64,000 nucleotides of DNA, from assembly GCA_021030905.1 (NCBI GenBank), contig JAGFMI010000005.1:682001-746000 (forward strand), written 5' to 3'. The notes under the pieces were generated by a model, which was not told the origin of the DNA, made no database searches, and worked only from the letters and a program-made list of their open reading frames with translations. Origin of the DNA: Pyrenula massariospora. Lineage: Eukaryota; Ascomycota; Eurotiomycetes; Pyrenulales; Pyrenulaceae. The position numbers and the translations under genes were made by a program. Below, piece after piece: positions 42,123-64,000 of the stretch; the stretch's first letter is position 1; every line of letters starts with the position of its first letter.

Positions 42123-44299
42123 ATGAGAATGGCATTTCGTTCTCTCGCCTGCTTTGCCCTAGTTGTAGTCCCTGCCATCACAGAATCAGTTCCTCGTGAG
42201 TGGTTGACCGATCCAACAGCGTTCACATATCTTGTGGAACTAATAAAACCCAGCACGTCATGGTCCCTTGGTTAAGAAATGTGACAACGAGACATCATCA
42301 ACACTGCCGTATCCCTATCAATCTTCAGGGTATCCAAGCACGAATGATTCAAGTGGAATTCCCAAGCCCTCAGGATCAAGTACCATCACCTCTCTGACAA
42401 TATCGATCAATAGCACGACATCCACTATAGAAATTTCTACATCAGTTTCCACGTCTATTTGTTTTGGTTATGGCTGTTCGACTCCGTCCGATACTTCGGG
42501 GTCAGCTTCTACCTCGACCATATCTACAACTGAAACAGCTTCATCGGCGGGTCCCAGCGGCTCTGTAACATCCGTCATTTCTTCTGGAAGTATTGCGACC
42601 TCTGCGACACAAAGCAGCTCCTCTTCGATCTCCTATCAACCGCCCTTCAGCTATGGGTCGTATACGCCGAGCTCCAGTGCTTCATCAGGCGGTAATTACT
42701 CCACCGGCTACACAAGCGGAGGATCATCAGGTATATTTCCCTCCAGCTATACTCCTAGCGGCTCTTCCGGATTTCCACCTCCATCCGGCACCGGGCTATC
42801 TTCTGTTGGCGTCTCGAGCGGAGTCCCCTTAGCCTCTGGCAGCCCCCTTCCTAATGGTACGGTCTCAACCTCAGAAGTGGAGACCACCATCTATCCTACA
42901 ACGACCGAAGTATTCACATTGACAACAAACAATGGAACCGCAGGTACAGGCTCTAAGTCAATCCCATCGAGCACAGGAGGAATCTACACAAACTCGTCAA
43001 CAATCACCTCCACTATCCCCTTGGTCAGCAGCGCAACTGCCGGAACTGGATCTGCCTCAGTCCCATCTAGTTCTGGAGGCATTTATACCAACACCTCAAT
43101 AATTATTTCCACCATCCCAATCGTTAGCAGTGGAACCGCAGGTACGGGATCGAGCTCAATTCCTCCAGGTACTGGAGGGTCTGCAGGCACAGGCTCTTCG
43201 TCATCTCTGTCAGCCACGGGCGGCATCTACACTAATACTACAACAATCGCCTCGCCTACTTCTTCTGGCAGTGCAAGCACAGGTACGGGCTTGACTTCAC
43301 TCACATCTGGTACAGGTGGCCCATATTCTAATACATCTTCCCCCATCTCCACCATTTCGTCCTTGACATCATCCCCGCCATACCCAATTTCAAGTTCCAA
43401 CTCCTCCAGCACCGGTACTGGAGGTTCCGGAACTGGGACAGGATACACCCTCAGCACAGTCACCGAGACAGGCAGTACCGTGGTCACCACAGTGACGTCT
43501 ACCTGTTCTGAAGAACCGACGGGCACTTCGGTCAATGGCAGTACCTACATTACAACGTACGCCTCAACATTGACATCTGGATCGAACGAGACATCAGTCA
43601 CGACTTACACCATCCCACTCTCGACCGTCAACGGAACAATAACCAGCACGCTGATTAACGGCAGCGTCGAGACCTCGACCGTATACTTCACTTCGATCGG
43701 AACATCATTCCCGGCACCCATCCCGCCAACGGCAAACGTATCCTCTTCTTCCACCTCCGCTTCGGAGACCACATCAAGCTCCGTGTCTGGAACGCCATCG
43801 TCATCAGCCAACGGCACGACATCGAGCACTGTCAGCTCTGAGACGACTACAGAATCAGCGTCGGGCTCCCCCACCCTATCCGCGAACGCAACCACGCTGT
43901 CTACATCTGCCTCTGAGACCACGTCTGACACGGCATCCGTCACGCCTCCCTTGTCAACGAACGCGACAACACTCTCGACCGTAACCTCTGAGACTACTTC
44001 TTCGAATTCTACCTCTTCGAGTGTCACGTCCTCCTCCTCCTCCTCCGTCTCGGAAAGTACCACCTCGGAGACGACCGTGTCCCAAACCACCACCTCGATC
44101 CCGGCGACGAATACGCCTCCCCCGCCGACCTACAGCCCCCCGCCCCCGCCGCCGAAGGACAACAGTCCCCAGAGCTGGGAGGCTTGGATACAGGCTATCG
44201 TAAGTTGCATTTTTTGCTTCTGCGTGAAATTGAAAAGAGATTGTCGGGCTAACGTGTTCTTCTTCGTAGTACAACTGGTTCAAGAACATCTTCGGTTGA
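42123..44299 (+). CDS. Secreted Ser/Thr-rich repeat glycoprotein (cell wall or adhesin-like)
   Basis: Exons 42123-42195, 42254-44199 and 44270-44299; 682 aa. Exon 1 encodes a signal peptide (MRMAFRSLACFALVVVPAIT). The body is overwhelmingly Ser, Thr, Gly and Pro with many N-glycosylation sites and 33-residue repeats (TAGTGS...GGIYTN...STIP.VSS). A Val/Thr block (TVTETGSTVVTTVTSTCSEE) lies near residue 415, and a Pro-rich stretch precedes the C-terminus WIQAIYNWFKNIFG. The 58 bp first intron and 70 bp last intron both use good sites; the last exon codes for nine residues. No GPI signal is visible, so it is probably secreted or wall-bound by other means. Function unknown; likely surface or wall protein. 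Confidence 0.75.
42937..43233 (+). repeat. Tandem 99 bp coding repeats
   Basis: Units start at 42937, 43036 and 43135. The first two are exactly 33 codons and align over most positions; the third starts alike then degenerates, with a further TGTG-type partial copy near 43,270. Confidence 0.8.
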
Positions 44300-44969
44300 A
44301 GCGGTTTGAGGATCGTCGAGGATCATCCTCGGGCCTCGGAAGGGGCAAATAGACCATCTCTCAGAGTACATGAACGGTTCAATCGGGGCATGGAGACATG
44401 ATGTGAGCTCTCTGGGTCTGGGATTGGAAATAGAAGGGGGTAGCATTTCTTGTTGGCGGGTGCAGGGGAGAAGAACAATGGGGAAGGGGAGTGGGGAGGA
44501 ATGGATGGCAGAGCAGTGGCCACTCTCGTATTTCGTTTTCCCTTCTTCACTTTCCTTTACTCGCATACCTTATCCGTATTGCCAAGTTTGCGTTCTCTAT
44601 CCTCGCTTGAACAGACATCCACTTCATTACCTTGCCTCTGCTTCTATCTTTGCCAACTGGAAACCCGAGGAAGCTTTCCCCCGTGCTCCCCCGTGCTTCC
44701 CCCCTCCCCCCCTTCCTAATTCACGTAACATGCGCCAATGACGGATCCTCTTCCAATGTCTCGGGAAAGCGTGCGACGTATGTAACCCCCCCGTCTCCGT
44801 CGCACCGCAGCGCTATTGAATCTCCTCCCGCTCCCGCTCTCCACCCCACCACCCATCCTTAAAACCCCACTCCCTGTGAGACGCGCCCCCGCCGCGCTGC
44901 CCTACCCCAAACACACCGTAAATCCCTCACAAAAAACCCAAGGTACGTACATCATACCCTCCCCCTTCC
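44300..44969. other. Convergent intergenic region, Ser/Thr-rich gene/P450
   Basis: 670 bp, with C-rich homopolymer-like runs around 44,690-44,720 and 44,780-44,970 on the plus strand. No gene recognised. Confidence 0.55.
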
Positions 44970-46738
44970 TTACCGCCTCACCTTGACCCTCACCGGCAAC
45001 CCCCCCTCCATCGGCAACGTCAGGCTCTGCCTCGACCTCCTCCTCTCCCCGCTCCCCACCCCCTCAATCTCAAACTCCGCAACCACTCGCCCCAGCACGT
45101 ACGCCATCATCAGCTCCGCCAGCCGCCGGCCCAGACACGCCCGCGGCCCCGCGTTGAAGACGGGGAACTCGTAGGCGGATTTCCAGGTTGAACGGAACTC
45201 GAGTCGTGGGCTTTCGGCGGAGGGTGAGGTTGAGGCTTGCAGCCAGCGCTCGGGGACAAAGGAATCTGGATCGTGAGAGCCCCAGGCGGTGGGGTCGCGG
45301 TTGAGGGCCCAGACACACCAGAGGACGATGGCGTTGGCGGGGAGGGCGGTGCCGTCGGGGAGGGTTGTGGGCGCGGCGCATTGTTTGATTTCGAAGGGGA
45401 TTGGGGGGTGGAGGCGGAGGGATTCGTGGAGGGTGGCTGTTGTGTAGGGGAGGGCGGTGGGGGAGAGGGAGTGGATGTTGTGGGGTGGTGGGGAGGAGTT
45501 GAATTCGGAGAGGATCGGTTGGATGGATTCGGGGTGGCGGATTAGAAGGTAGAAAGTCCAGGTCAGAGCCTGGGCGGTGGTGTCGCGGCCTAGGTGAGAG
45601 CTGTTAATGACATGTTGTTGAGACGAGGGTAAGAGAGGGAGGTTGTACCGGCGGAAAGAAAATTCAAAGCTGCGTCTTGCACGAGCTTTGGGTCATGAAG
45701 TGTGTCTAGGAACGCGTCGAGGAGACGACCGTAGGATGCTTGTTCTTTGTTTTCGGGTATGAGGGACTTAGGCCTGTTTCGACGTTCAATTGCCCTTGCG
45801 ACAATTGTTTCTCCAAAGCGTCTGACTTCAGCCAAAGCTGAACGAAATCTGGCGCCTGTGAATAGCTCCGTCAAGGGGTAAATTGGGTTTTGAAACCGCT
45901 CGCCCGTCTGTCCAGAGCAGTATTCGAAGGCTGCAGTGAAAGGAGAGGCGGATGGGAGATCCATCTAGTTCGACGGGTTAGATTGAGTTCTAGGCGGATG
46001 ATAGAGAAAACTAACGTCATATGCTACTGTCCCAAAGACTCTTGTGGTGAGATCGAGCATGATTGCCTCGAGATCACCTACAGCGCCTTTTTCTGATAAA
46101 GCAAGTAGTTGCTGTCTCATTACCGCATAAGACTTGGGAAGCACCTCCTCAACAATCACACAAATATTTGACCCGCTCAAGAATTGAACACCGGCTTTTC
46201 GCTGAGCTTTCCAAAGATCTCCGTCCACATTGATGATGCCATTCCCTTCTTCTCGTAAGAATCGCTATGCAACATAATACTGAAGGAGCCAAATCCTACC
46301 GAAAAGGTCCCAGGACCTTCGACGAAAAAATTCGCCTTTGGTGAAGAGCTTTTCATTCTTGAGGACGAACTCCAGATTTTTCGGGTCATGAATCAGAACC
46401 CCGGCTGGCAATGAAGGGACGGCTATCTCCACGGTCTCATGGCCAAATTGCCGCTGACAACGAACAAACCAAGCAAAAAGAGTATCTCTAGAACGAATGA
46501 ACTGCAGGGCATTCCCAAGAAATGGAAGAGTGCCTGGAGGTTTCCTAACAGCTTGAAAGTATTAAAAAAATGAAAGCGCTACATTGGTGATCATGATCAT
46601 GGCTTTACAAGGCCGTGTGGATTCAAAGATGGACACTGACCTTAATTGGCGTCCGTGTCGACTGATCGAGCTCTGCCTCGCAAAGGCAATAAAAGCTAGG
46701 AGCAGAATAATTGAGAGGCAGGTGGCAATAGTAATCAT
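44970..46738 (-). CDS. Cytochrome P450 monooxygenase
   Basis: Exons 46738-46641, 46544-46300, 46245-46016, 45964-45649 and 45589-44970; 502 aa. One N-terminal membrane anchor (TIATCLSIILLLAFIAFA), hinge KPPGTLPFLGN, I-helix AGRDTTAQALTW, ExxR in LHESLRLHPP, PERW, and heme loop FPVFNAGPRACLGRR with Cys448. The order FFRRRSWDLFGNGIINVDG is typical of the CYP52/CYP86-like fatty-acid hydroxylase clan, so long alkyl chains are plausible substrates (inference). All four introns (96, 54, 51, 59 bp) restore family motifs; the intron 2 acceptor choice (46246) is the least certain by one residue. It diverges from the type III PKS gene, suggesting a shared pathway. Confidence 0.9.
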
Positions 46739-47388
46739 GTTCTCATAGGCTGCTCGTGGCTAGTGAGCCTCGGCTTGGAAGCTACTTTTCCCTTTGAGCG
46801 AGCGGCTAGACTGCTGATGAACTTGACGCGTTATCTTCAGCTTCTCACGCCGCCATATCGGTACATCCGAGACTGTGGCGGCTGTCTGGGGTTCCGCTCA
46901 TCAGACCCCTTCTGTCTGAGCTGAAGCTACGTCTGGGAAGCTATGGCCACTTTGACAGTGGTGTGGCAGTGTCGGGATTCTCCCGCGCCGAGAACGAAGA
47001 GCCTGGAGCTGAGAAGCTGCTAGCACTGGAAGCTCCCTTCCCGGCGCGGTATGGGGGAGAAGCGGAAATAGTTGGAAATGCTAAAGGACTAATTGACAGG
47101 TTTCCTAATCTGAGGACATGGTTAAATGCGCGGCGGCTGACATCATGAAGGCGGGACGTTGAGACAGACTCCCTCAACAGCCAGGAGCGAAGCAAGCGGC
47201 CGCCTGAGCGCCACCGATCCCTGCACACTCGCGTGAGCATCCTTTCCAACGACTAATTGTCATGATGACCTTTGTTGGTGCGGCTGCATCTTAAAGACTC
47301 TGAATTTGCAACAAAGACTCCATGCGCTCCTTTTCATCGTTATAGCCTGCTGCGGCATCATCTCGTCATATCACAGCTATTTCACAGC
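46739..47388. promoter_or_regulatory. Bidirectional promoter P450/type III PKS
   Basis: 650 bp between two start codons. It holds a nested inverted repeat: GCCGCC (46849-46854), CGG (46859-46861), TACAT, CCG (46867-46869), GGCGGC (46877-46882). CGG-N5-CCG is a form recognised by Zn2Cys6 regulators of fungal metabolite clusters. No regulator gene is seen nearby. Confidence 0.55.
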
Positions 47389-48770
47389 ATGTCACCTTCG
47401 GTGGACCATGGCCGGGAAACCACCGCCAGGACTCCTACGAATCTCTACGTTCACGGCATCGGCGTGGAATATCCAAAGCACACAATTACCCCAGATGCTT
47501 TGGAGACGTTGGCTCGGCGTCACTACCCATCTTCCCCAGCGTATGGCCATCCTAATTTTGCTATAACAAGACATTGTTCGGTCTTCATTTGGAGATAACG
47601 AACAGCCGTAAGCATTTCGTGGCGAGACATTCACTGACAATGGCTTGTTTCAGGTTGGACAAGGTCCTCATGATCAACCAATTCACAGGAATAGAGACAC
47701 GGTCCTCGATAGGCAACATAGACCATGAGATTGCCAACAGAGAATCTCCGCCGTCGATAGCTGAATTGTGCGATGTCTTTTTGGATGAGGGCGTCAAGTT
47801 GTCCGTGGAAGCATGCACAAAGGCGATCGCCGACTGGGGAGGGGACCCAAAGAGCATCACGCATGTAGTCGCGACCACTTGTACCAATTCGGCCAACCCA
47901 GGATTTGATCATTTTGTGGTCAAGGCTCTTGGAATGGATACATCAATTGAAAAGGTGCTTCTCCACGGCGTTGGGTGTTCTGGCGGCCTCAATGCATTGC
48001 GCACAGCGGCAAACATTGCTCTAGGATCCAGTTTCATGAGGAAACCTGCTCGAATTCTCGTGTTAGCTTGCGAATTATCGACTCCTCTGGTCAGATCGGA
48101 ATTAGAGTCTATCCACAAGAACGAAGAAGTTCGAATAGGTGTCACCTTGTTCAGTGATTGCGCATCGGCCGTCGTACTAGGTAATGGAATTGGAATGAAA
48201 GGTTTCGAAGAGAGCCGACTAGAGCTCCTTTCCTGGGACCACAAAATCATAGATGACACGGAAAAAGAACTTGGCTTTGATGTTGATCCACATGGTCAGT
48301 ACACAACAGGAGCAGCATGAACGAGCCACTAATTCGCACAAGGTTGGAAAGTCGTTCTGACCATGCAAGTACCAAAGATGACAGCGGCAGCAGTAAAACC
48401 GATATTCGAAAATCTTGTAAAGGCAACTCCAGAGCTCATGGATTCCGAAAAGATATCACCGTCAGATTTTGATTGGGCCTTGCACCCCGGAGGTTCAACC
48501 ATCATTACTGGAGTCGAGCAAACAATGGGCATCACACAAGACCATCTTCGGGCCAGTTATCAAGTGTACATGTCACACGGCAATAGCTCGAGCGCTACTT
48601 TTTTTAGTGTGCTTGATCAATTGCTGAAAACGGGCCCTGGAAGAGAGCATATCGTTGGTTGTGCTTTTGGACCTGGAATCGCGGTTGAGACAATGATGTT
48701 CAAACGAATCGACAATCAGACCGATTCGTCCGGGAGCAGTAGCCCTGGCGCATTAGTGGAGACTTCATGA
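47389..48770 (+). CDS. Type III polyketide synthase (chalcone-synthase-like)
   Basis: Exons 47389-47540, 47654-48294 and 48343-48770; 406 aa. The Cys-His-Asn triad is intact: Cys162 in GVGCSGGLN, His312 in FDWALHPGG, Asn345 in SHGNSSSAT. Other landmarks: YVHGIGVEYP, INQFTGIETRSSIG, ATTCTNSANPGFD, SDCASAVVLGN and CAFGPGIAVETMMF. A homodimeric ketosynthase that extends an acyl-CoA starter with malonyl-CoA and cyclises it to pyrones or resorcinols; starter and product cannot be read from sequence. Intron 1 (113 bp) joins SSPA to LDKVLMIN; intron 2 (48 bp) gives DPHGWKVVLTMQ. Divergent from the P450. Confidence 0.94.
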
Positions 48771-48854
48771 CTCCATCTCGGCGTTGGTTGGAGCGGGTAT
48801 GATAAGAGTAGACTACTGATTAATGGGAAGGCTGTCATTCATTAGAATGCATGG

Positions 48855-49226
48855 TTAGAGTAGACTTAATCCGTGAGACAACAATGCTATGAAACAAGCA
48901 AGATGCGCAGCGAAATGAACAATCGGCTCAAGGCTTCCATCACTTGTGCTTTGTGGATCAGCCATTCGAAAGGCGGCCCTGACAAGCGGCCCTAAGTGAT
49001 ACTGTGCCAATGCAGCGGCTACTGCTCGGCCGGTCGTGTCTTGTGGTTGAAATGCAAACACTCCAGCCACGAAACAGGTAGAGATCAGAAGAGTGCCGTA
49101 TTGTCGTATGATGGCATGGGCGTGTGGTTGAGGCGCTACCAGCTGGTTATTTGGCCGTAGAAGAAAATTTAGTCCTGCCGGAGCCTCCACCAAAATGTGA
49201 AGCAGGAACCCAATCCGAATCTCCAT
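48855..49226 (-). CDS. Small membrane protein, unknown fungal family
   Basis: Single exon, 123 aa. Four hydrophobic segments are visible: GFLLHILVEAPAGLNFLL, YGTLLISTCFVAGVFAF, VAAALAQYHLGPLVRAA and VHFAAHLACFIALLSHG. It resembles small four-helix fungal membrane proteins of unknown role that I have seen described only as hypothetical. Its stop lies 84 bp from that of the type III PKS (convergent), and it diverges from the methyltransferase-like gene. Co-location suggests, but does not show, a role in the same pathway, for example handling a lipophilic product. Confidence 0.7.
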   Translation of the reverse strand: MEIRIGFLLHILVEAPAGLNFLLRPNNQLVAPQPHAHAIIRQYGTLLISTCFVAGVFAFQPQDTTGRAVAAALAQYHLGPLVRAAFRMADPQSTSDGSLEPIVHFAAHLACFIALLSHGLSLL

Positions 49227-49719
49227 GCTTTTTATTTAGGAGCGAAGTAATGCTCTGTACAAATATGTGTCGACATGAACAACTCTTTAGAGGCAGAATG
49301 CATAATCTAGTCAGTTGACCCTACATGTCTTGAACAAAATCCCATCGACCTCGGTTCACTGCACGGATGAAGGTGGAGGCCGCTGCTTTAAAGGGATTCA
49401 AGCTGAGTCGTTGTGAGGATTCTATAATTAAACACGTATCGATTGCTTCTGTTGGAACTTGACTAGGTATACAGTGATAGAAGACGGGGAGAGATCCGAG
49501 ATATTACAAGTAGACTTTTGAAGAGTCTAACCAGCTCTGACTCCGAAAAATCAGGCCATCTATTTGGGGCGGGGGTCTGATCGTCCCAAAAATTTTGGGT
49601 TTCCGAGTAAGCACCGCTTTCTGAACGAAAACATTTCCTGACAACTTCGTTCTAAGACATCTAACGTTGTAGAAAAGCCTAGGATTAGTCATTTAGGTAG
49701 ACCGCAACAGGTGTGCCCA
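49227..49719. promoter_or_regulatory. Divergent promoter, membrane protein/methyltransferase-like
   Basis: 493 bp between two start codons; AT-richer than the genes. No specific site assigned. Confidence 0.45.
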
Positions 49720-50704
49720 ATGGTTCCTCGCTTGTTCGAGATCAATGATCAGTCTTGGTACTGTACACAATTTATCTCTCACATTTGAATATCTAACAGT
49801 TCCTCTACGCTTCCTGGCTGAGACTAATGCTTTTCAAGGTTCCCGCAAATTTTAAGAGAGAAGGTTCAGGACGATCTCACCGCACTATGGACCTTTCGCG
49901 TGCCAATCCTCCAGAAAACATCGCCTGCACGCCTTGTATCTTCGACCATCGCGCGCGTCCTCGGTGACGACACCACATCCTACACCTTTGTCGATTTTGC
50001 AGCAGGAGCCGGCGGTCCCACTCCTTCCATTGAACAGGAATTAAATCGCCAGCTTCAGGCAGAAAAGCGCTCCCCAGTCAATTTTCTCATGACAGACCTT
50101 CATCCACATGTCGAGGCATGGAAGTCTGCCGCAAAGAAGAGTCATTTCCTCGACTACGTCTCTGAATCCGTGGACGCGTCGAATGCTCCGGAAGAACTTC
50201 AATCCGAAGTCCAAAAAGGCAAGAAGCTGTTCCGAATGTACAATCTTGCTTTTCATCACTTCCCTGATGAACTGGCTATACGCATCTTGAAGGACTCTGT
50301 TAAGACATCAGATGGCTTTGGGTATGTTTCTTTCCTGCTCATCGATATGCAGCTCCTTGAATTTAACGTGTGTCTCAACTAGAATTTTTGAGCTTCAGTC
50401 TCGTTCACTTGCTTCTTTTTTTATGGTGTTCTTGTTGGGCCCCTTGTTGATACTTATCACCCCTATCTTTTTCTGGCGATCTCCTGTTCACCTCATTTTC
50501 ACCTACGTCATCCCCATCATTCCTTTGGTGGTGGTGTTCGATGGCTATATATCAAGTCTACGAACGAGATCAGCAGAAGAGATCAAAGGCCTGCTGAATT
50601 CAGGGAGTGAGCTTCACGGATGGAAAATTCTTAGCGGCAAGGACGAACACACCTATGGTCTGGGATATCTGACATGGTTCATCTGCATCAAAGAAGGAGC
50701 ATAG
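49720..50704 (+). CDS. Methyltransferase-like membrane protein
   Basis: Exons 49720-49757, 49839-50321 and 50383-50704; 280 aa. Start MVPRLFEINDQSWFPQILRE is restored by splicing the 81 bp intron (CTAAT branch site). A Rossmann-type SAM site is suggested by FVDFAAGAGGPTP followed by the acidic end FLMTDLHPH and by LAFHHFPDELAIRILKD. Directly after IFELQSRS comes a hydrophobic hairpin (FFMVFLLGPLLILITPIFF and LIFTYVIPIIPLVVVF), then a soluble end. This is a fungal family lacking known function. A membrane-bound methyltransferase acting on a lipophilic polyketide would fit the neighbours, but is inference. Confidence 0.78.
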
Positions 50705-51079
50705 CTTGTGTCTGAATTCTCCACACTGTCTCTTCTTGCTCGGAATAAGACGAACTTGAACGTATAGCCTTGTGCTACTTCTGAACGCAAAGCCAAGCCG
50801 CATTAAGCCTAAGCCCAAGCTCTTTTCCGCTATCCCGACGACATGTCGTGAATAAGGAATCGGGATTGCAGAGGAAGGAATGTGCAACCACAATCCCGCC
50901 CCGCATTGAGTTTCCCGCAGGCCCCCAAAACTCCGCCTTGTTGCCTGCTCTCTGACCCCGTGGGGTAGGTATCTCTACCTTTCAATCCAGATAAGCCCCT
51001 CGACTTCACTCTAACATCTTCCAATCCATCAAATCTCGAATCGATCTCATCATCGGATAGCTTATTTTCAAATACCGCT
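50705..51079. promoter_or_regulatory. Promoter region of AAA ATPase gene
   Basis: 375 bp between tandem genes; the last 100 bp are pyrimidine-rich. No specific site assigned. Confidence 0.45.
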
Positions 51080-52794
51080 ATGGACTCGTCCCAATTGTCT
51101 CAGGATTTTGCCCGGCTCTCACTCCATACTGACAATGTCTTTGGAGATTTTGAAGAATTCACTTCAGCCAAGCAGAGCCTACCAGATACTGTGTTCACAG
51201 CTGCAGTCAGAGCTCACCATCCCAAGCTGAATCTCACCAAATGCATGGCCTACAATGCGGACCTTCTTGGATTTGCCAAGGCAGGCTACGCCAAGGCCGA
51301 ACTTGATTCCATCGATGACTCTCTCCTGAGGACTAGGTACTACTTCACCGGGCCAAAACGCCAGATTCCCGGTGATCTGGCAGATGCTGTCGTGTTCTCA
51401 AAGCATAAGTATACCTGGATGAACAAAGAGTTCATCGTGTACCTCATTGGCAACGTCTATTACGTTCTTGCCGAGCCGGGAGAGAATGAGACTACCGCAT
51501 CCCATTGTGAACTGACGGATAAGCTTATCCTCACCTGCGGAGAGACTCAGAGCGCTCTTGACCATGAAATACTGGTCTATGACGGTTACTGGTCAAAAAA
51601 CCGCGCCCTATATGAAGAGGTCCAGAAAGCGGACTGGCGAGATGTGATCCTGAACGAGGACATGAAGACCACACTGATGGAGACCATGGAACGATTCTTC
51701 GACAGCGAAGAACAATATCGCAATCTCGGCGTGCCATGGAAGCGTGGCATAATCTTCTGGTGAGTGGATGTACCGCCCAAAACAACTTGGAGCTTCCATG
51801 CCGATAATTTCTTCAGGGGTCCACCGGGGAACGGGAAGACGATTTCCCTCAAGGCATTGATGAAATCCCTGTCTCTTCGCGAAGATCCCATTCCGACACT
51901 GTACGTGAAAAATATGGGGTACGGCGTTCGGAATGTCTTCCTCAAAGCCAGACAGATGTCGCCATGCGTGGTGGTCCTGGAGGATATCGATACCCAGCTG
52001 TCGCCTGGGATGAGAAGCTACTTCTTCAACGAACTTGACGGTCTTGAAAATAACAATGGCTTGTTCCTCATTGCGACGACGAACCACCGTAAGTGAATAT
52101 GTCGACCCTTCCTTAACGTTAGACCATTAACACTAGCAAAGTTGAACGCCTGGACCCTGGACTTGTGAAGCGTCCGAGCCGGTTCGACAGGAAATACCTT
52201 TTCCCCCTGCCATCTTTCGATGAACGCGTCTTATACTGTGATTACTGGAGGTATGTGACTGGGTTTTCAATGATTCCTCTTCTGCCTTCTGGGTGTCAGT
52301 GTTCTCACATTCTTCCCAGACGCAAGCTTCGTTCCAATGCCGCTCTCAAATTCCCGCCTTCACTCGGGCCCGCCATCGCCGAAATCACTTCCGACTTCTC
52401 CTTCGCCTACCTGAAAGAAGCCTTCGTCGCCAGTCTCCTGGCCCTCGCCCACGAATCACTGGAATCTGACAGTGACAACGAGGGCGAAGATCCCGACATC
52501 AACGACCTCCCGCTCTGGATCGAGATTCAGAAGCAGGTCCGCACTCTCCGCGAGGATATGGACAACAGCAAGTCTGCCGCCGAGGCGGGCAACGCAGAAA
52601 ATTGGGCTGCGGATATTAAGATGCCGCCGGACGGACGCCCTCGATGGAACTATGGGATGGGGCCTCACGGATGCACCATTTCGGATACGCCGAACGCGTT
52701 CGCGAGTGTTTTGGTGCCAAGGATTGAAGGGTTTGGACGGAGGCTTGGAGATAGGAGTCAGGGTGATGACGACTCTATCGATGACATGTGTTAG
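51080..52794 (+). CDS. Bcs1-like AAA ATPase
   Basis: Exons 51080-51759, 51817-52088, 52142-52250 and 52320-52794; 511 aa. An N-terminal region without membrane span is followed by Walker A GPPGNGKT, Walker B VVVLEDID, sensor ATTNHLERLDPGL, and Arg fingers KRPSRFDRKY, then a helical lid and a variable acidic tail. It is nearest to fungal AAA proteins annotated as Bcs1-like, but lacks the mitochondrial targeting and transmembrane segment of true Bcs1, so a complex III assembly role is not supported. Such proteins are numerous in filamentous fungi and uncharacterised. Three introns (57, 53, 69 bp). Membership of the PKS locus is uncertain. Confidence 0.86.
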
Positions 52795-57327: not shown

Positions 57328-60300
57328 CTACCGGTGAAGAACGTGCAGCAACTCCACCTTGAGATTATACATCATCTTCTCAATGTCTTTCCGCTCCAAA
57401 ATACCCCGCGAGTCGAAAAGCCCAACATTCAAGCCATTAGCGTTGACACTCGCTTCTACGTCTAGAGTAGGCTATGTGAGGATTGTTAGTCTCATCCTTC
57501 GTTGTGATTTTGGCGTGATCATGACTTACCAGATATGCATCAGTCACAGTCGAATCCTGCACTAATGCATTCGTAGCGTCTCTCTCCGTAACCTCTCCTG
57601 CTTTGTTGCTCTGCCCGTGTTCTACTTTGAACAGCCTGATCTCGTTCTGCTGAGGTTTTCCGGTACCTTCCCCAGGCTCCGCCCCAGGCTCTGGCACCTT
57701 TAAGAAATTCAAACAACAATCAATTTTTACGCCTGTCCATGCCAAGATTTCGTGTAAAGCCACGCCACAGTATTCAGCTCGCCCAACCTCACCCAAATCT
57801 CTCTGCACGCGCTTTGCGATATCCAGAATAGCATGGGAATCATCACAAGAGCTTAAAGCCTTGACTTTGATCCTTAATGGAACGATACTGACCGTCGGAG
57901 CTGCCAGACGCTCGAGCCCTTCAATCTCATGCGAGCGATTTGCCAGGTAGACTCCAAGAATCAATTCATCGTCCTGTGTTGACGTCGACCGTTTTCTATG
58001 TGAATGGCGTTGTTTATGGAACGTCCGCGTAAAGGCCGCCATGAAGACAGCCTGAAGGCTGAGACCATTGTGTCGGGCTATTTCTTCAAGTTTAGTGGCG
58101 TTGCGGATAAGGTCTGGCTTAAATAGCTCGACGCGCTTGGCCCTCGATATAGAATGGACGGCTTCTGAAGAATGAGGTTTTGTGTTGGCAAGGTACGTGG
58201 TCCAAAATTCTCGCTGTCGCACCTTCTGAGATTGAGAGAATGTCGACGTCAATTCTAGATACCGTCCAAAGTCGGTATTCGTATTAGTAATAGCATCTGA
58301 GTTGTTACACAGGCTCTGGAGGTTGTGTACTATTTCAGTCAGAGACACTGCATCGTACAGAGCGTGATGTAACTTGATGGTGATGCTGTTTGGCTTGGAA
58401 CTGGCGAAGAGCTTGACCATCGACATCGGATTCTTTGATGGTTTTGTCCTGCTAGAGGTTCCGTCAGACCATTGAATCGAATTTTGAACATTTTTGAGAA
58501 CCACTTGGACAAATGGACAGTCGCGTCTCCTAGTTGGCAAGAATTTGGATCTCAAAATTGGAAGTCTGTCAATTAGGGCTATCCAAGCAGCCTCTAATTT
58601 CGTTCGAGAGACGTTGTGGTTAAGTTTGAAGGAAAAAGAAGGGTAGAAAAGCGTGCTTTTAGCCTTTTGGCACATTATCAAGGCATAGCTTTGGAAGGCG
58701 GTGGTTGGAAGCATGTATGCGACATCCTTTTGGTGCAGATTATTGCTAATCAATATCTCGTCCGTGTTTAATCCTTCAGGCATTTCCAGCGGCGTCTTTT
58801 TTGGTTGGCCTCGTGACGAATCTGGGTTTTCCTGGATCTTGGCTGCCATTCTCTCGACTGTCACTGCGCGGAGCATATCACTCACAGAAAGTCGTAGAGA
58901 CTGCTTTCTTAGTGCTGAAGACAGCTTTATCGCATTTATGCTATCAAGTCCAAGATAAAAAAGGCTGGTCTGCTTTGTGATATCATTCTCGGGTGTGTTA
59001 GTCACCTTTGAGAGCGACGAGCGTAGTGTGACCTCCATAGGGCTCCACTCTGGTGTAGAAACTGCATCTGTTGCATGAACATCTAATAATCGATCGGCAG
59101 TGTGCCTTTCAATAGCATCTCTGGACTTGAAAGTAGAAAATCCGCTCAAGGTAACCTGTCCACTTGATTCGATAAAGACCTCTCCTTCAGGATGATTGAG
59201 CATCGCCGCAAGTACTGCATCGATGTGCTGAAGTAACTCTTCCGTACCCTTCTGGTCGAAAGCACGCTCTTGGCACGCTATTCTCCATACCACTTTCTTG
59301 TCAGCAACTTCCATCTCAACGTTGACGGGGAATTCAGTGGCTGAGGAGCCACTGACAGAACGATATAATTCTGGTAATTGACCAGTGACTGGGGGCCGTT
59401 TCTGAGATATGAATAAAGTATTAAAGAGAGCATCAGAGCGTTGGCCTGCAAGCTTCATCGCTTCTCGCATAGGAAAATGTTGCGCTTCCGTAATTTTAGA
59501 GCTTGTGTCTTGTATGTATTTCAGCATTTGGCTCCTGTTGCCGTGCAAGATAGTACGGAAAGGTACGGTATTCATCATTGGGAAGATCGCGTCTTCCGAT
59601 CCCTCCATGGTACGTCCAGATAGCACCAAGCCAAAACAGACATCGAGTTGTCCTGTTTGCCAGGCCAGTATCATAGACCAGCATACAATTCCGAGGGTTT
59701 GCAGTGTCACGCTTTGTTCTCGGCAAAATTTGTGCACCTCGTCGCTAGAAAAAGCTGACTGCATCTCTGCGCGGTGTAGCAAATGGCCAGACCTTTCGGT
59801 GATTGGAACAAGCGTAGGCGTTGCTTTGGATAGCTGGCTCGCCCAGAAAGAGGAATTTTGAGGGTTGTTCGCATGTAATATTTGCCAAACAACTTCCTTA
59901 CAAGGAGGTCGCTGGACTGGCGAATGGCAGGCGTAATGCTTCCTAACATCTTCAAGAATAAGATTCATTGACCATCCGTCGAAGATCGCATGCGCCGCGG
60001 TCACGATAAGGAAAGACTTTGATCCACAATGAACGAGAGTCAGTCGCAGCATGGGCGCCTTTAAACCTGACTTCCTTGCTTCTTCGCGTATGCTATGTAT
60101 AACGTCACTTATTTCCGTTTCTTGACGGACCTGAAGTGATTCCCACTCTGGATCAGACGCGGGGAGGACGGCTTGAGCAAAGGAAAACGGACATTGTGCA
60201 TCTTCTATAGCGATAAAAGTCGTTCTCAAGATGGGATTGTCTTGAATCACTGCGTTCCAAGCAGTGAGGACCCTTTCCTCTCGAATACCTGGTGAAAGCT

Positions 60301-63300
60301 CCAGCACGTCATGGTTGTAGTATTCCGCATACCCTGAGGAGAGCATCTGAGCGATCATGCCCTCCTGTAAACTTGTTGCGGGTAGAACAAGCTCATATGA
60401 GTCTAGGTTGACACTTTGATTCCTCAGAGATTTCTCAAGCTGCTCATTTGGAGTGATGAACTTCGGACCCTCATTTGGCGAGTCTTCGTACTTCTGAGCA
60501 AATGAGATCTTGGTCATCATCCTATCAATATTTTGACATCGCATAATTTCGCTGACGGTAACGCTAATGCCCACCCCCTTGAGTCGTGCAGATAGCTTGA
60601 TCGCATCAATGCTATCTAGGCCCAACTCCAAGATGGATGTATGGGACTGAACGTCTTGGATCTCAACACCAGCAAGAGCAGCGATGACCTCGCGTACGTT
60701 TCTCGCTGGGACAGTCCATTCTAATCCGTTAGATTTCTCCACTCGAGGGCTCAGCTTGGTATGTTTAGATTCTTGGCTTGACCTTCTGGTCCTAGTTCCT
60801 TTTCCCCCAATATTATTGGTAGGGTCTGATGCCGCAAGTGCGACAAAGTTTTCCAAATCTGAAGCAAGCTGCTCTAATTTAGGAATATCGGAGATAATTC
60901 CCGTTGCCACTATAGTCATGGAGAGTGAATCATCTTGATCCTGCTGTATCTCAATGGCTAGCGGGTATTCTGTTGCAGAATCGCTCTCAGCGGCAGACCA
61001 GAGTTGGTTGCATATGTCCTCCTCTGCCCTTTGCTTTTGGAAGACGAACAAGGAATCAAATAGAGGTCGTTTCGAGGATCTCCGAGTCCACTTCAGGATG
61101 TCTCTAAGTGGTGTATGCTGATATGGCAACAAAGAAATGTTCAACTCATGACACTTTTTGATCAGCTCGGAAATCGAGCAATCGTTCGTGCATTTGATTT
61201 GGAAGGGTAGAGTATTAAACATTGGACCAACCACTTCATCAGCGCCTTCTGTCTCGAGAGTTCTCCCCGAAACAACGATGCCGATGGTCGGCATAATCCC
61301 AAAATGCTTTCGGAGGGTGAGAAGCCAGCATGCTTGGAAGATTGCAGGTTCAGTAACACCAAGACTGGAGCGTAGCAAGCGTATACATTCCCGGTCATTG
61401 ATTTGCTTTGACATAGAGAGGGAGTTGAGCAATCCGGTCTGTTCTTGCTGGAAACCAATTGGCTCAGGATGACTTAAAGAACTGGTCCAGAATCCTTTTT
61501 CTCCTGCTGCTTGACAGAGAGGGCCCCGGCTTAAACCCTGTTGGAATGACAGACGACGACCCGGGGACGGTTGTTTGAGGTATTTTCGGGCAACGTCTTC
61601 CAAGATCATGGAGAGACTGATGCCGTCATAGAGTGCATGGAATATGCTGAGACACATCACACGTTGACGAGCAGTCTCCACAATTCTGACGGTCCATAAA
61701 CGTCCTTGTAAGTTCCTTGTTTCCTCGCACCAGCTCTCGTGGCTATTTTGTATAAAGTAGCGAAAGTCATCATTGTTCTCTACCGAAATAACCGGGATGT
61801 GGATCGGTTCATCGTTTGCCACTACAGCCTGCGCATATCCATCATCTGACAGAACGAAATGGGTTCGAAGTATGCCATTTTGACTTCGGACTTCAGACCA
61901 AGCGGTCTGTAACCGTCCGACATCGACGGTATCTCTCAATCGAAAAGTAAACAACGATATATAGAGAGACCTCGCACTCTCCGATGTTTTATATATCATT
62001 CCTTCTTGCAAAGACGTGCATGGGGCTAACTGCTGGATATCTTCGACATTTCTCCCAAGTTTCTCAGCTACTAGAGAAAGCTGTCGATGGCGAAAGGCTA
62101 GAATATTCTGTTCAGCAGAGTGTTGGAACCCCCGAGCGCGGTCTGAAGGATTTGGATGATTTTCGAAACTTGCTGCCAGGCTTTGGGCGGTAGAACATCT
62201 CATGATCGTTGAAGGCTGGACCTGAAAGCCGTCACGTCTTAAAGCACGAGCGAAAGCTATTACTGATATTGAATCAAGGCCTAGCTCAAAGAAGCTGGTG
62301 GTTGAGGTGATCGTACCGGGTTGCGAGTCGTTGAAGATCTTGCTAAAGATCTGAATTATCTTTGACACCATTGGAGAGTCTTGCCCGGCAGAAGGATAGA
62401 CTTGAGACCCGTTTTGGACCTCTTCCATTGATAGATTGTCATACCATGCTTTAAGCCTCTTCTGATCAATTTTGTTATTTGCTGAAAGGGGAAGACGATC
62501 TATAAGTAAGATCGTTGTCGGAACCATGTACGCAGGCAAGTGTTCACGGCAAGCATTATGCAGGGTACGTCGGAGTTCAAGTTTCGACTCGTTAACAATA
62601 AGAGCCATCTCTTGAGCTTTACTTTGACCATTTTCTATTGCGACAAATGAGACGAGTTGGTGGCTGGTCTGTTTCGGATGCCTAAACACAGAAGTGAAGA
62701 CTTCCTGAGCTTCCTTGGTTGCTTCTTGGATAATATGATTGATCTCTCCGACTTCCAGCCTCTGACCCCGAAGCTTGACTTGGTCATCAAGCCTACCTAC
62801 AAACTCAAAGCTATCATCATGGAGAAGGCGAACAAGATCACCGGTGTGATAGACTCTTCCACCAAGCTTTTCGAGAAACTCGAATTTCCGCGTCGTCAAT
62901 TCCGGACGATTGTGGTAGCCACGTCCGACAAGAGGCCCAGACACGCACAGCTCTCCGATCGCGCCTCTGGGAACGATATTTTGTGTTCCTGCTTGAAGAA
63001 CTAGTGATCCAACATTGTCAAATTGTGGACCAATGTTTGAAGGTTTTGCAACCCCTGATAATCGTGGGAGCATAGTGCAGCCTATTGTGACCTCTGTCGG
63101 CCCGTAGCCATTGTATATCACTTTTTCGTTGCCCCAAGTATCGATTATCTCCTGGCGTAGCTGTTCACCTCCAGTAATAAAGACTCCTTTCCGTAAAGAC
63201 GGCACCTCTTCTGGAGTTAACAATCGGGCTAGGCTGGGCGTTAAATCAAGATGTGTAACATGTAAAGCCTGAATAGCAGCACAAATATCTTCAAGCAAGA

Positions 63301-64000
63301 GGTCTCTTGGTGCCGAGACCACACAAATTCCAACGGCCCAACTCCAGTATTGCTCTAGAACGCTGACATCAAAGTGGAACGATGCAAACTGTAACCATCG
63401 CGACGAGTGGTCCCAATGACCTGTGAATAGTCGCTGAAAAGCCATCATCGCCTGCACAGCGTTTGAATGCGTAATTTCACAGCCTTTGGGTGTACCTGTA
63501 GATCCTGACGTGAAAAGGCAGTAACATAGCTCGTCTTCCGAGATGGGTCGTTGGAGTGAGGGAGGATTTCGCGGGAGCCCATTCAAGATGTCGAAGACAT
63601 CCATTGCAATGGTGAAAGGAGCGTTCAATCCAGAAAGCTCCTTTACCTTGTCATTTGTGGTCAATAGCGCAGTGCAGGCAGTGTCTCGAAGCAAGAACTC
63701 TTTGCGAGCAGGCGGGGCAGCTGGGTCAATAGGCACGTAGGAACAGCCAGCTTTCAAAATTCCCAAGATGGTGAAAGATGCCTCAGGGCACTTGTCGAAG
63801 CAGATCCCAATCAAGCTACCTTGAACGACACCTCTCCTAAACAGGAGTTGAGCGATCGCGTTCCCCTCCTCGTCAAGTTCTCGATAAGTCCAGGATAGTT
63901 TTCTAACGCTGCTTTTGTCAATATCACTAGCAAATTCAAATGCAATCTTTTCTGGAAATTCTCGAGCTGATCTTTCTACGAACTGATGAAGTAGTTCGAC
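57328..64000 (-). CDS. sidC: Ferrichrome-type siderophore NRPS, C-terminal part (A-T-C-T-C-T-C), 5' end outside window
   Basis: Exon 57530-64000 (continues right) and last exon 57471-57328; 2,204 residues in view. Order: adenylation domain from the edge (WTYRELDEEGNAI, FTSGSTGTPKG, NGYGPTEVTIG, YHTGDLVRLL, GRLDDQVKLRGQR); carrier LGLDSIS; condensation with HALYDG; carrier LGLDSID; condensation with HAIFDG; carrier LGLDSIN; terminal condensation with HHALYDA. A lone A domain followed by three T-C pairs is the hallmark ending of SidC/NPS2/Sib1, which joins acyl-hydroxyornithines with small amino acids into cyclic intracellular siderophores. The A domain around FASFHFDVSVLEQYWSW closely recalls the third A domain of those enzymes. 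The 58 bp intron near the stop restores LDVEASVNANGLNVGLFDSR. The promoter, where GATA-type iron control would act, is not in view. Confidence 0.9.

What the first reader, a model, noticed from the sequence alone, without database searches (positions are those of the whole stretch)
44970..50704. Candidate undescribed type III polyketide locus: P450, PKS, small membrane protein, membrane methyltransferase
Seen: four genes in 5.7 kb, arranged as two divergent pairs, P450 (-)/type III PKS (+) and four-helix membrane protein (-)/methyltransferase-like (+). The PKS triad and P450 heme motif are intact. Known: fungal type III PKSs make alkyl pyrones or resorcinols and are sometimes paired with a P450. 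Inference: the P450, of CYP52/CYP86-like character, oxidises the alkyl chain and the membrane proteins modify or hold a lipophilic product. I know of no described pathway with this exact set.
Basis: partly seen in the sequence, partly recalled or inferred. Interest (0 to 1): 0.72.

Follow-up and report, generated by a model that had tools for sequence, protein, structure and literature searches.

The report
Fungal phenolic-lipid synthase beside a P450
The stretch holds a fungal enzyme that probably builds phenolic lipids next to an oxidising enzyme, a pairing already seen in many fungi; two further membrane-linked genes lie beside them, but nothing found here ties them to the same pathway.

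Summary
Four gene models fit 44970-50704: P450 (-), type III PKS (+), a 123-aa four-helix membrane protein (-) and a methyltransferase-like protein (+), as two divergent pairs. The PKS triad Cys159-His312-Asn345 and the P450 heme Cys450 are intact.

The PKS is ORAS-type, 54% identical to Neurospora ORAS, and the only type III PKS match in this 37.8 Mb genome. By homology it should make alkylresorcinols, resorcylic acids or pyrones from long-chain acyl-CoA. A P450 beside such a PKS is ordinary: a published survey calls it frequent in clade 1, where ORAS and BPKS lie.

The methyltransferase is more interesting: a class I SAM methyltransferase with a hydrophobic hairpin and no Pfam match of its own; 63 of 64 bacterial loci fetched by a motif encode a relative. 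In those stretches (2.5-8 kb) no type III PKS was found and no neighbour family recurs, so it looks free-standing. The small membrane protein is the least certain gene. Promoter words shared by the two pairs are not clearly above chance.

Verdict: an ordinary PKS-P450 pair; membership of the other two genes is unproven and needs fungal synteny or expression data not available here.

The parts
44970..46738 (-). Cytochrome P450, 504 aa; exons 46738-46641, 46544-46300, 46251-46016, 45964-45649, 45589-44970
   Evidence: Splice model; PF00067 E 1e-55; heme Cys450, ExxR, N-terminal hydrophobic anchor 1-19; best-scoring other stretch in G000 33% identical
46739..47388 (.). Shared promoter region of P450 and PKS (650 bp), divergent
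   Evidence: Between the two start codons; motif scan
47389..48770 (+). Type III PKS, ORAS-type, 406 aa; exons 47389-47540, 47654-48294, 48343-48770; triad C159, H312, N345
   Evidence: only PF00195 match in G000
48855..49226 (-). Small four-helix membrane protein, 123 aa, single exon; weakly DUF998-like; least certain gene; membership of the pathway unproven
   Evidence: single match in G000 at E up to 1
49227..49719 (.). Shared promoter region of the membrane protein and methyltransferase genes (493 bp)
49720..50704 (+). Class I SAM methyltransferase-like protein with membrane hairpin (hydrophobic 186-204 and 208-226), 280 aa; exons 49720-49757, 49839-50321, 50383-50704; membership of the pathway unproven
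   Evidence: no second copy in G000 at E up to 1

Best explanation
A two-gene phenolic-lipid module. The ORAS-type PKS takes a long-chain acyl-CoA, adds three or four malonyl units and closes the chain to an alkylresorcinol, alkylresorcylic acid or alkylpyrone (inferred by homology to ORAS). The divergently transcribed, membrane-anchored P450 then hydroxylates the chain or the ring (inferred from adjacency and from the recurrence of such pairs in print). The small membrane protein and the methyltransferase are neighbours whose part in this pathway is open. The methyltransferase is most likely a real class I SAM enzyme (shown by homology and by the model of a relative) that methylates a lipid-phase substrate, because a hydrophobic hairpin follows its Rossmann core (inferred); which substrate is unknown.
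For: PKS: 208 of 385 aligned residues identical to ORAS, 461 bits against 305 for CsyB and 260 for 9hrb; the triad and the second active-site Cys (C127, spacing as ORAS Cys120 to Cys152) are conserved (ORAS numbers from PMC6274091 passages). PMC6985275 (sections 15, 13 and 3, passages): ORAS orthologs and BPKS give resorcinols from long starters; P450 genes are frequent next to clade 1 PKSs; the BPKS and CtPKS loci hold a P450. PMC12559476 (sections 6, 10, 11): P450s frequently co-localise; [quoted passage not shown] No type I PKS ketosynthase match nearer than about 144 kb (111 of 111 candidates scored), so an ordinary acyl-CoA starter is likelier than an rPKS-made one.
Against: No expression, product or fungal synteny data. 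No Zn2Cys6 regulator, frequent in clade 1, among the 142 matches reported within 90 kb (150 of 212 candidates scored). The P450 could be an unrelated neighbour. PMC6985275 found no obvious cluster at the ORAS locus itself, and in a Verticillium survey (PMC9495618 passages) the type III PKS locus as listed has no P450. At 54% the PKS is further from ORAS than BPKS is (65% in PMC6274091), so its product may differ.
Confidence: 0.68

Rival explanations
1. A four-gene pathway: PKS makes an alkylresorcinol, P450 hydroxylates it, the membrane methyltransferase O- or C-methylates it and the small membrane protein holds, exports or further converts the lipophilic product.
For: Four neighbouring genes in 5.7 kb with two shared promoters; PKS, methyltransferase and membrane protein without a second copy found and the P450 without a close paralog. 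[quoted passage not shown] The hydrophobic hairpin suits a lipid substrate.
Against: In 64 bacterial loci carrying the methyltransferase motif there is no relative of the PKS or of the membrane protein and one marginal P450 hit (E 0.02) (stretches of 2.5-8 kb only); no Pfam family recurs in more than 3 of 82 neighbouring frames. Shared promoter words: 6 shared 9-mers against 2.2 expected, reached in 11 of 200 shuffles; 2 shared 10-mers, 29 of 200; none of 11 bases or more. Gene spacing like this is not unusual in a compact fungal genome (inference).
Confidence: 0.2
2. The P450 too is only a neighbour, and the PKS works alone, as may hold at the ORAS locus.
For: No obvious cluster at the orthologous locus of ORAS, SmPKS and SsArs in PMC6985275.
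Against: P450 beside type III PKS is recurrent in several clades and counted among ancestral core clusters in PMC6985275; here they share one 650 bp promoter.
Confidence: 0.1
3. A hybrid locus with the NRPS whose end lies at 57437-64000, the PKS making a building block for it.
For: PMC6985275 reports 26 fungal type III PKS genes next to NPS or NPS-like genes.
Against: The NRPS end holds one A, three T and three C domains (I infer the order A-T-C-T-C-T-C), the tail I recall for SidC-type ferrichrome synthetases; 6.7 kb with an AAA ATPase gene lie between.
Confidence: 0.02

Closest known systems
ORAS, Neurospora crassa 2'-oxoalkylresorcylic acid synthase (PDB 3e1h, 3euo)
   Same: 54% identity over 385 residues, same triad spacing, same second active-site Cys
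   Different: No obvious gene cluster at the ORAS locus in PMC6985275; here a divergent P450 lies beside the PKS
BPKS (Botrytis cinerea) and CtPKS (Chaetomium thermophilum) loci, clade 1 of Navarro-Munoz and Collemare 2020
   Same: Type III PKS next to a P450 (PMC6985275 section 15)
   Different: Those loci list an enoyl reductase and transcription factor (BPKS) or thiolase, sugar transporter and F-box genes (CtPKS); here a methyltransferase and a small membrane protein, and no Zn2Cys6 match reported within 90 kb
Soppiline cluster of Penicillium soppi (pspA, pspB, P450)
   Same: Type III PKS plus P450 acting on its product (as described in PMC6985275)
   Different: There a reducing type I PKS supplies the starter; here the nearest ketosynthase match is about 144 kb away
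Bacterial alkylresorcinol operons (hidABC; planctomycetal methyltransferase-oxidoreductase-PKS; srsABC recalled)
   Same: Logic: PKS, oxidising enzyme, methyltransferase (PMC10896814 passages)
   Different: Other gene order and kingdom; the oxidase is a P450 instead of an FAD enzyme; kinship of the methyltransferases was not tested
NCBIfam PRK06202 (NF004851, hypothetical protein)
   Same: 25 of 42 bacterial relatives of the methyltransferase match it at E up to 0.01
   Different: The window protein itself has no NCBIfam match at E up to 0.1

Membership tests
Fungal type III PKS, ORAS-type (clade 1) | Chalcone/stilbene synthase N and C domains | tested here: met
   PF00195 and PF02797 above cut-off
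Fungal type III PKS, ORAS-type (clade 1) | Cys-His-Asn triad | tested here: met
   C159, H312, N345 with the spacing of ORAS C152, H305, N338
Fungal type III PKS, ORAS-type (clade 1) | Nearest to ORAS among solved type III PKSs | tested here: met
   461 bits against 305 for CsyB; 54% identity
Fungal type III PKS, ORAS-type (clade 1) | Falls in clade 1 in a tree of fungal PKSs | not tested
   Fungal PKS sequences beyond the PDB were not available
Fungal type III PKS, ORAS-type (clade 1) | Makes resorcinols or resorcylic acids from long acyl-CoA | not testable with these tools
   Needs enzyme assay
Clade 1 type III PKS gene cluster | P450 next to the PKS (frequent) | tested here: met
Clade 1 type III PKS gene cluster | Fungal transcription factor nearby (frequent) | tested here: inconclusive
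   Nearest Zn2Cys6 match reported is 90 kb away, but 62 of 212 candidates were not scored
rPKS-linked type III PKS clusters (clades 7, 8) | Reducing type I PKS at the locus | tested here: not met
   Nearest ketosynthase match about 144 kb away, 111 of 111 candidates scored
CYP52/CYP86 fatty-acid hydroxylases | At least 40% identity to a named member | not testable with these tools
   No named member in reach; the best PDB hits are plant carotenoid hydroxylases; motif likeness is recalled
Class I SAM-dependent methyltransferases | Rossmann-type SAM fold and motif I | tested here: met
   Model of a bacterial relative, pLDDT 94.3, matches class I methyltransferases in the PDB; the window protein, which was not itself modelled, keeps VDFAAGAGG and TDLHPH and 8 of 8 family-invariant columns outside the search pattern
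Isoprenylcysteine-type membrane methyltransferases (as recalled for SrsB) | Match to that Pfam family | tested here: not met
   Only PF11241 at E 0.18 in Pfam at E up to 1
DUF998 | Score above Pfam gathering cut-off | tested here: not met
   24 bits against 30
Anthrone oxygenase DUF1772 (four-helix membrane, considered) | Match to the Pfam family | tested here: not met
   Not among the Pfam matches at E up to 1

The most novel reading that the evidence does not exclude
A fungal counterpart of the bacterial alkylresorcinol-to-methoxyquinone pathways, put together from different enzymes: an ORAS-type PKS, a P450 in place of the flavin hydroxylase, a bacterial-type membrane-hairpin class I methyltransferase, and a His-bearing four-helix membrane protein as carrier or last oxidase, together making a methylated, oxidised phenolic lipid or quinone.
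Probability: 0.12. Interest if true: 0.6.

Novelty: new member of a known kind. Interest (0 to 1): 0.3.

Why it matters
As it stands it adds one more ORAS-type PKS-P450 pair to a catalogue that is already large but has few known products. If the two other genes proved to belong, it would give fungi a methylating, membrane-bound branch of phenolic-lipid synthesis like that of bacteria. Apart from the locus, the membrane-hairpin class I methyltransferase family, shared by a fungus and many bacteria, with no Pfam entry of its own found in my scans and no substrate known to me, deserves an assay in its own right.

Tried and rejected
Tried without result: relatives of the methyltransferase by exact peptide patterns in genome contigs (105 stretches matched, none confirmed) and of its bacterial alignment in viral contigs (41 stretches, none confirmed); relatives of the PKS in viral contigs (1 stretch, not confirmed); relatives of the membrane protein in six bacterial genomes (none; no positive control). 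Rfam on the window: no match at gathering score. Shared promoter words: 12 8-mers against 9.0 expected (49 of 200 shuffles as high), 6 9-mers against 2.2 (11 of 200), 2 10-mers against 0.64 (29 of 200), none longer: not convincing. CGG/CCG-type pairs: 8 listed in the PKS-P450 promoter, 1 in the other, without a control. Codon-based coding score: PKS 0.11 and methyltransferase 0.12 lie above all 42 shadow frames (highest 0.076); P450 0.06 and membrane protein 0.017 do not, and one other frame of the membrane-protein stretch scores higher, 0.05, so the score does not settle that gene. The MFS search scored only 9 of 474 candidates and says nothing about a nearby transporter. The model of the membrane protein was too poor for a fold search.

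Rejected: a chalcone or flavonoid pathway (PMC12559476 section 10 found no phloroglucinol-type product from its fungal enzymes); an rPKS-fed hybrid cluster; a chance assembly of frames for PKS, P450 and methyltransferase (homology).

Biases: the bacterial relatives were fetched by a pattern that fixes most of [FW]DG-x-VS-x-LRVY, so invariance there is by construction. In one search, 13 of 16 invariant columns are kept in the window protein; the three changed ones lie in the pattern, and outside it 8 of 8 are kept; of 19 nearly invariant columns 15 are kept. The 42-row alignment is 42 of 63 relatives: 59 of at least 230 aa were thinned at 75% identity to 44, and I left out two more (L020, L066). 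The neighbour scan used 82 of 114 neighbouring frames called by a simple script, the shortest mostly left out, and only 25 of 99 families found are listed. My notebook says the relatives are mostly Myxococcota; by the titles it is 32 of 64.

Papers: PMC6985275 abstract, sections 3, 13, 15 and passages; PMC12559476 abstract, sections 6, 10, 11 and passages; passages only of PMC6274091, PMC10896814, PMC9495618, PMC6941272, PMC9920419, PMC6337363 and PMC10608907; the rest search listings.

Full report
Observation. The window belongs to a 37.8 Mb unnamed assembly in 33 contigs; introns and gene content show a filamentous fungus (inference). Reading the region and splicing by eye at GT-AG sites gave four models: P450 on the minus strand (44970-46738, 5 exons, 504 aa), type III PKS on the plus strand (47389-48770, 3 exons, 406 aa), a 123-aa protein on the minus strand (48855-49226) and a 280-aa protein on the plus strand (49720-50704, 3 exons).

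The PKS. Both chalcone-synthase domains score above cut-off. The best solved relative is N. crassa ORAS (3e1h, E 2e-137), 208 of 385 aligned residues identical. Cys159, His312 and Asn345 have the spacing of ORAS Cys152, His305 and Asn338, and Cys127 that of ORAS Cys120 (numbers from PMC6274091, passages). It is the only PF00195 match in the genome. That ORAS, SmPKS, CtPKS and BPKS give resorcinols from long starters is from PMC6985275; the product here is inferred.

The P450. PF00067 E 1e-55, heme Cys450, ExxR and an N-terminal hydrophobic anchor. It has no close paralog: the best-scoring other stretch in the genome is 33% identical. The CYP52/CYP86 character rests on recalled motifs. Published surveys make the pairing ordinary: P450s are among the three most frequent domains at fungal type III PKS loci and frequent in clade 1, with the BPKS and CtPKS loci as examples (PMC6985275 section 15); P450s are frequently co-localised (PMC12559476 section 11). 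In lichen genomes one cluster with a reducing PKS, P450 and chalcone-synthase-like genes is reported (PMC6337363 passages).

The methyltransferase. The window protein matches no Pfam family above cut-off and no NCBIfam family. A recalled motif used as a DNA pattern fetched 64 bacterial loci; 63 of 64 encode a relative (E 5e-8 to 3e-31), the best 34% identical among the 59 compared by BLASTP. By title 32 of 64 loci are myxobacterial; the rest include other Deltaproteobacteria, Chloroflexi, Acanthopleuribacter, an Acidobacterium-type MAG and a Streptomyces. A 42-row alignment gave a model of the Streptomyces albus relative with mean pLDDT 94.3, whose closest solved folds are mostly class I SAM methyltransferases, TM-score by query length 0.39-0.55 among the 50 listed. 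In that model helix 163-183 and the helices 189-197 and 200-215 follow the core; by the alignment they overlie, roughly, the hydrophobic stretches 186-204 and 208-226 of the window protein. Of 16 invariant columns 13 are kept in the window protein; the three changed ones lie within the search pattern. Among the 42 relatives 11 hit Methyltransf_25 weakly (best E 9.6e-5) and 25 hit the unnamed PRK06202 (best E 1.9e-11).

Context of that family. In the frames of at least 80 aa of the 64 loci (2.5-8 kb each) there is no relative of the PKS or of the membrane protein at E up to 1, and one marginal P450 hit, E 0.02. Of 82 neighbouring frames scanned (of 114 called) no Pfam family occurs in more than 3. 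So the family is not tied to type III PKSs in these bacteria. This weakens, but cannot exclude, its membership in a fungal pathway.

The small membrane protein. Four helices in a low-confidence model, a below-cut-off DUF998 match, one match in the genome, no codon support. It may be real but carries no evidence of function.

Linkage. The promoters of the two pairs share 6 9-mers against 2.2 expected (11 of 200 shuffles as high) and nothing of 11 bases or more. No ketosynthase match lies nearer than about 144 kb, and no reported Zn2Cys6 match nearer than 90 kb, with 150 of 212 Zn2Cys6 candidates scored. The NRPS ending at 57437 holds one A, three T and three C domains in the window, like the tail I recall for SidC-type synthetases, and is more likely a siderophore gene than a partner.

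Verdict. An ORAS-type type III PKS with a divergent P450: a new member of a known kind. The four-gene pathway is possible (about 0.2), with a functional precedent in bacterial methyltransferase-oxidoreductase-PKS operons (PMC10896814 passages), but untested. My eight literature searches covered only the open papers held here; in their listings I saw no title describing this four-gene set, and I opened nine papers, as told under Tried and rejected.

Noticed in passing
57437-64000 (-): End of a large NRPS with one A, three T and three C domains in the window, resembling the tail of SidC-type ferrichrome synthetases as recalled; it runs out of the window.
   Followed up: partly
L020-L083, for example L039:5910-6683: A bacterial family of class I SAM methyltransferases with a membrane hairpin, 32 of 64 loci titled as myxobacterial, with no own Pfam entry found and no recurrent immediate neighbours.
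   Followed up: partly
44970-45589: The last P450 exon is 65% G+C, while the other four are 46-51%; cause unknown.
   Followed up: no
G000, whole genome: 63 separate ketosynthase places after merging 115 matches within 3 kb (fatty acid synthases and the like not removed): a PKS-rich fungus, which would fit a lichen-forming or similar ascomycete, but the species was not determined.
   Followed up: partly
42247-44352 (+): Long Ser/Thr-rich frame with low-complexity repeats, likely a cell-surface protein; no Pfam match at E up to 1.
   Followed up: no
50969-52794 (+): AAA ATPase gene in several exons downstream of the methyltransferase (exon structure by eye).
   Followed up: no
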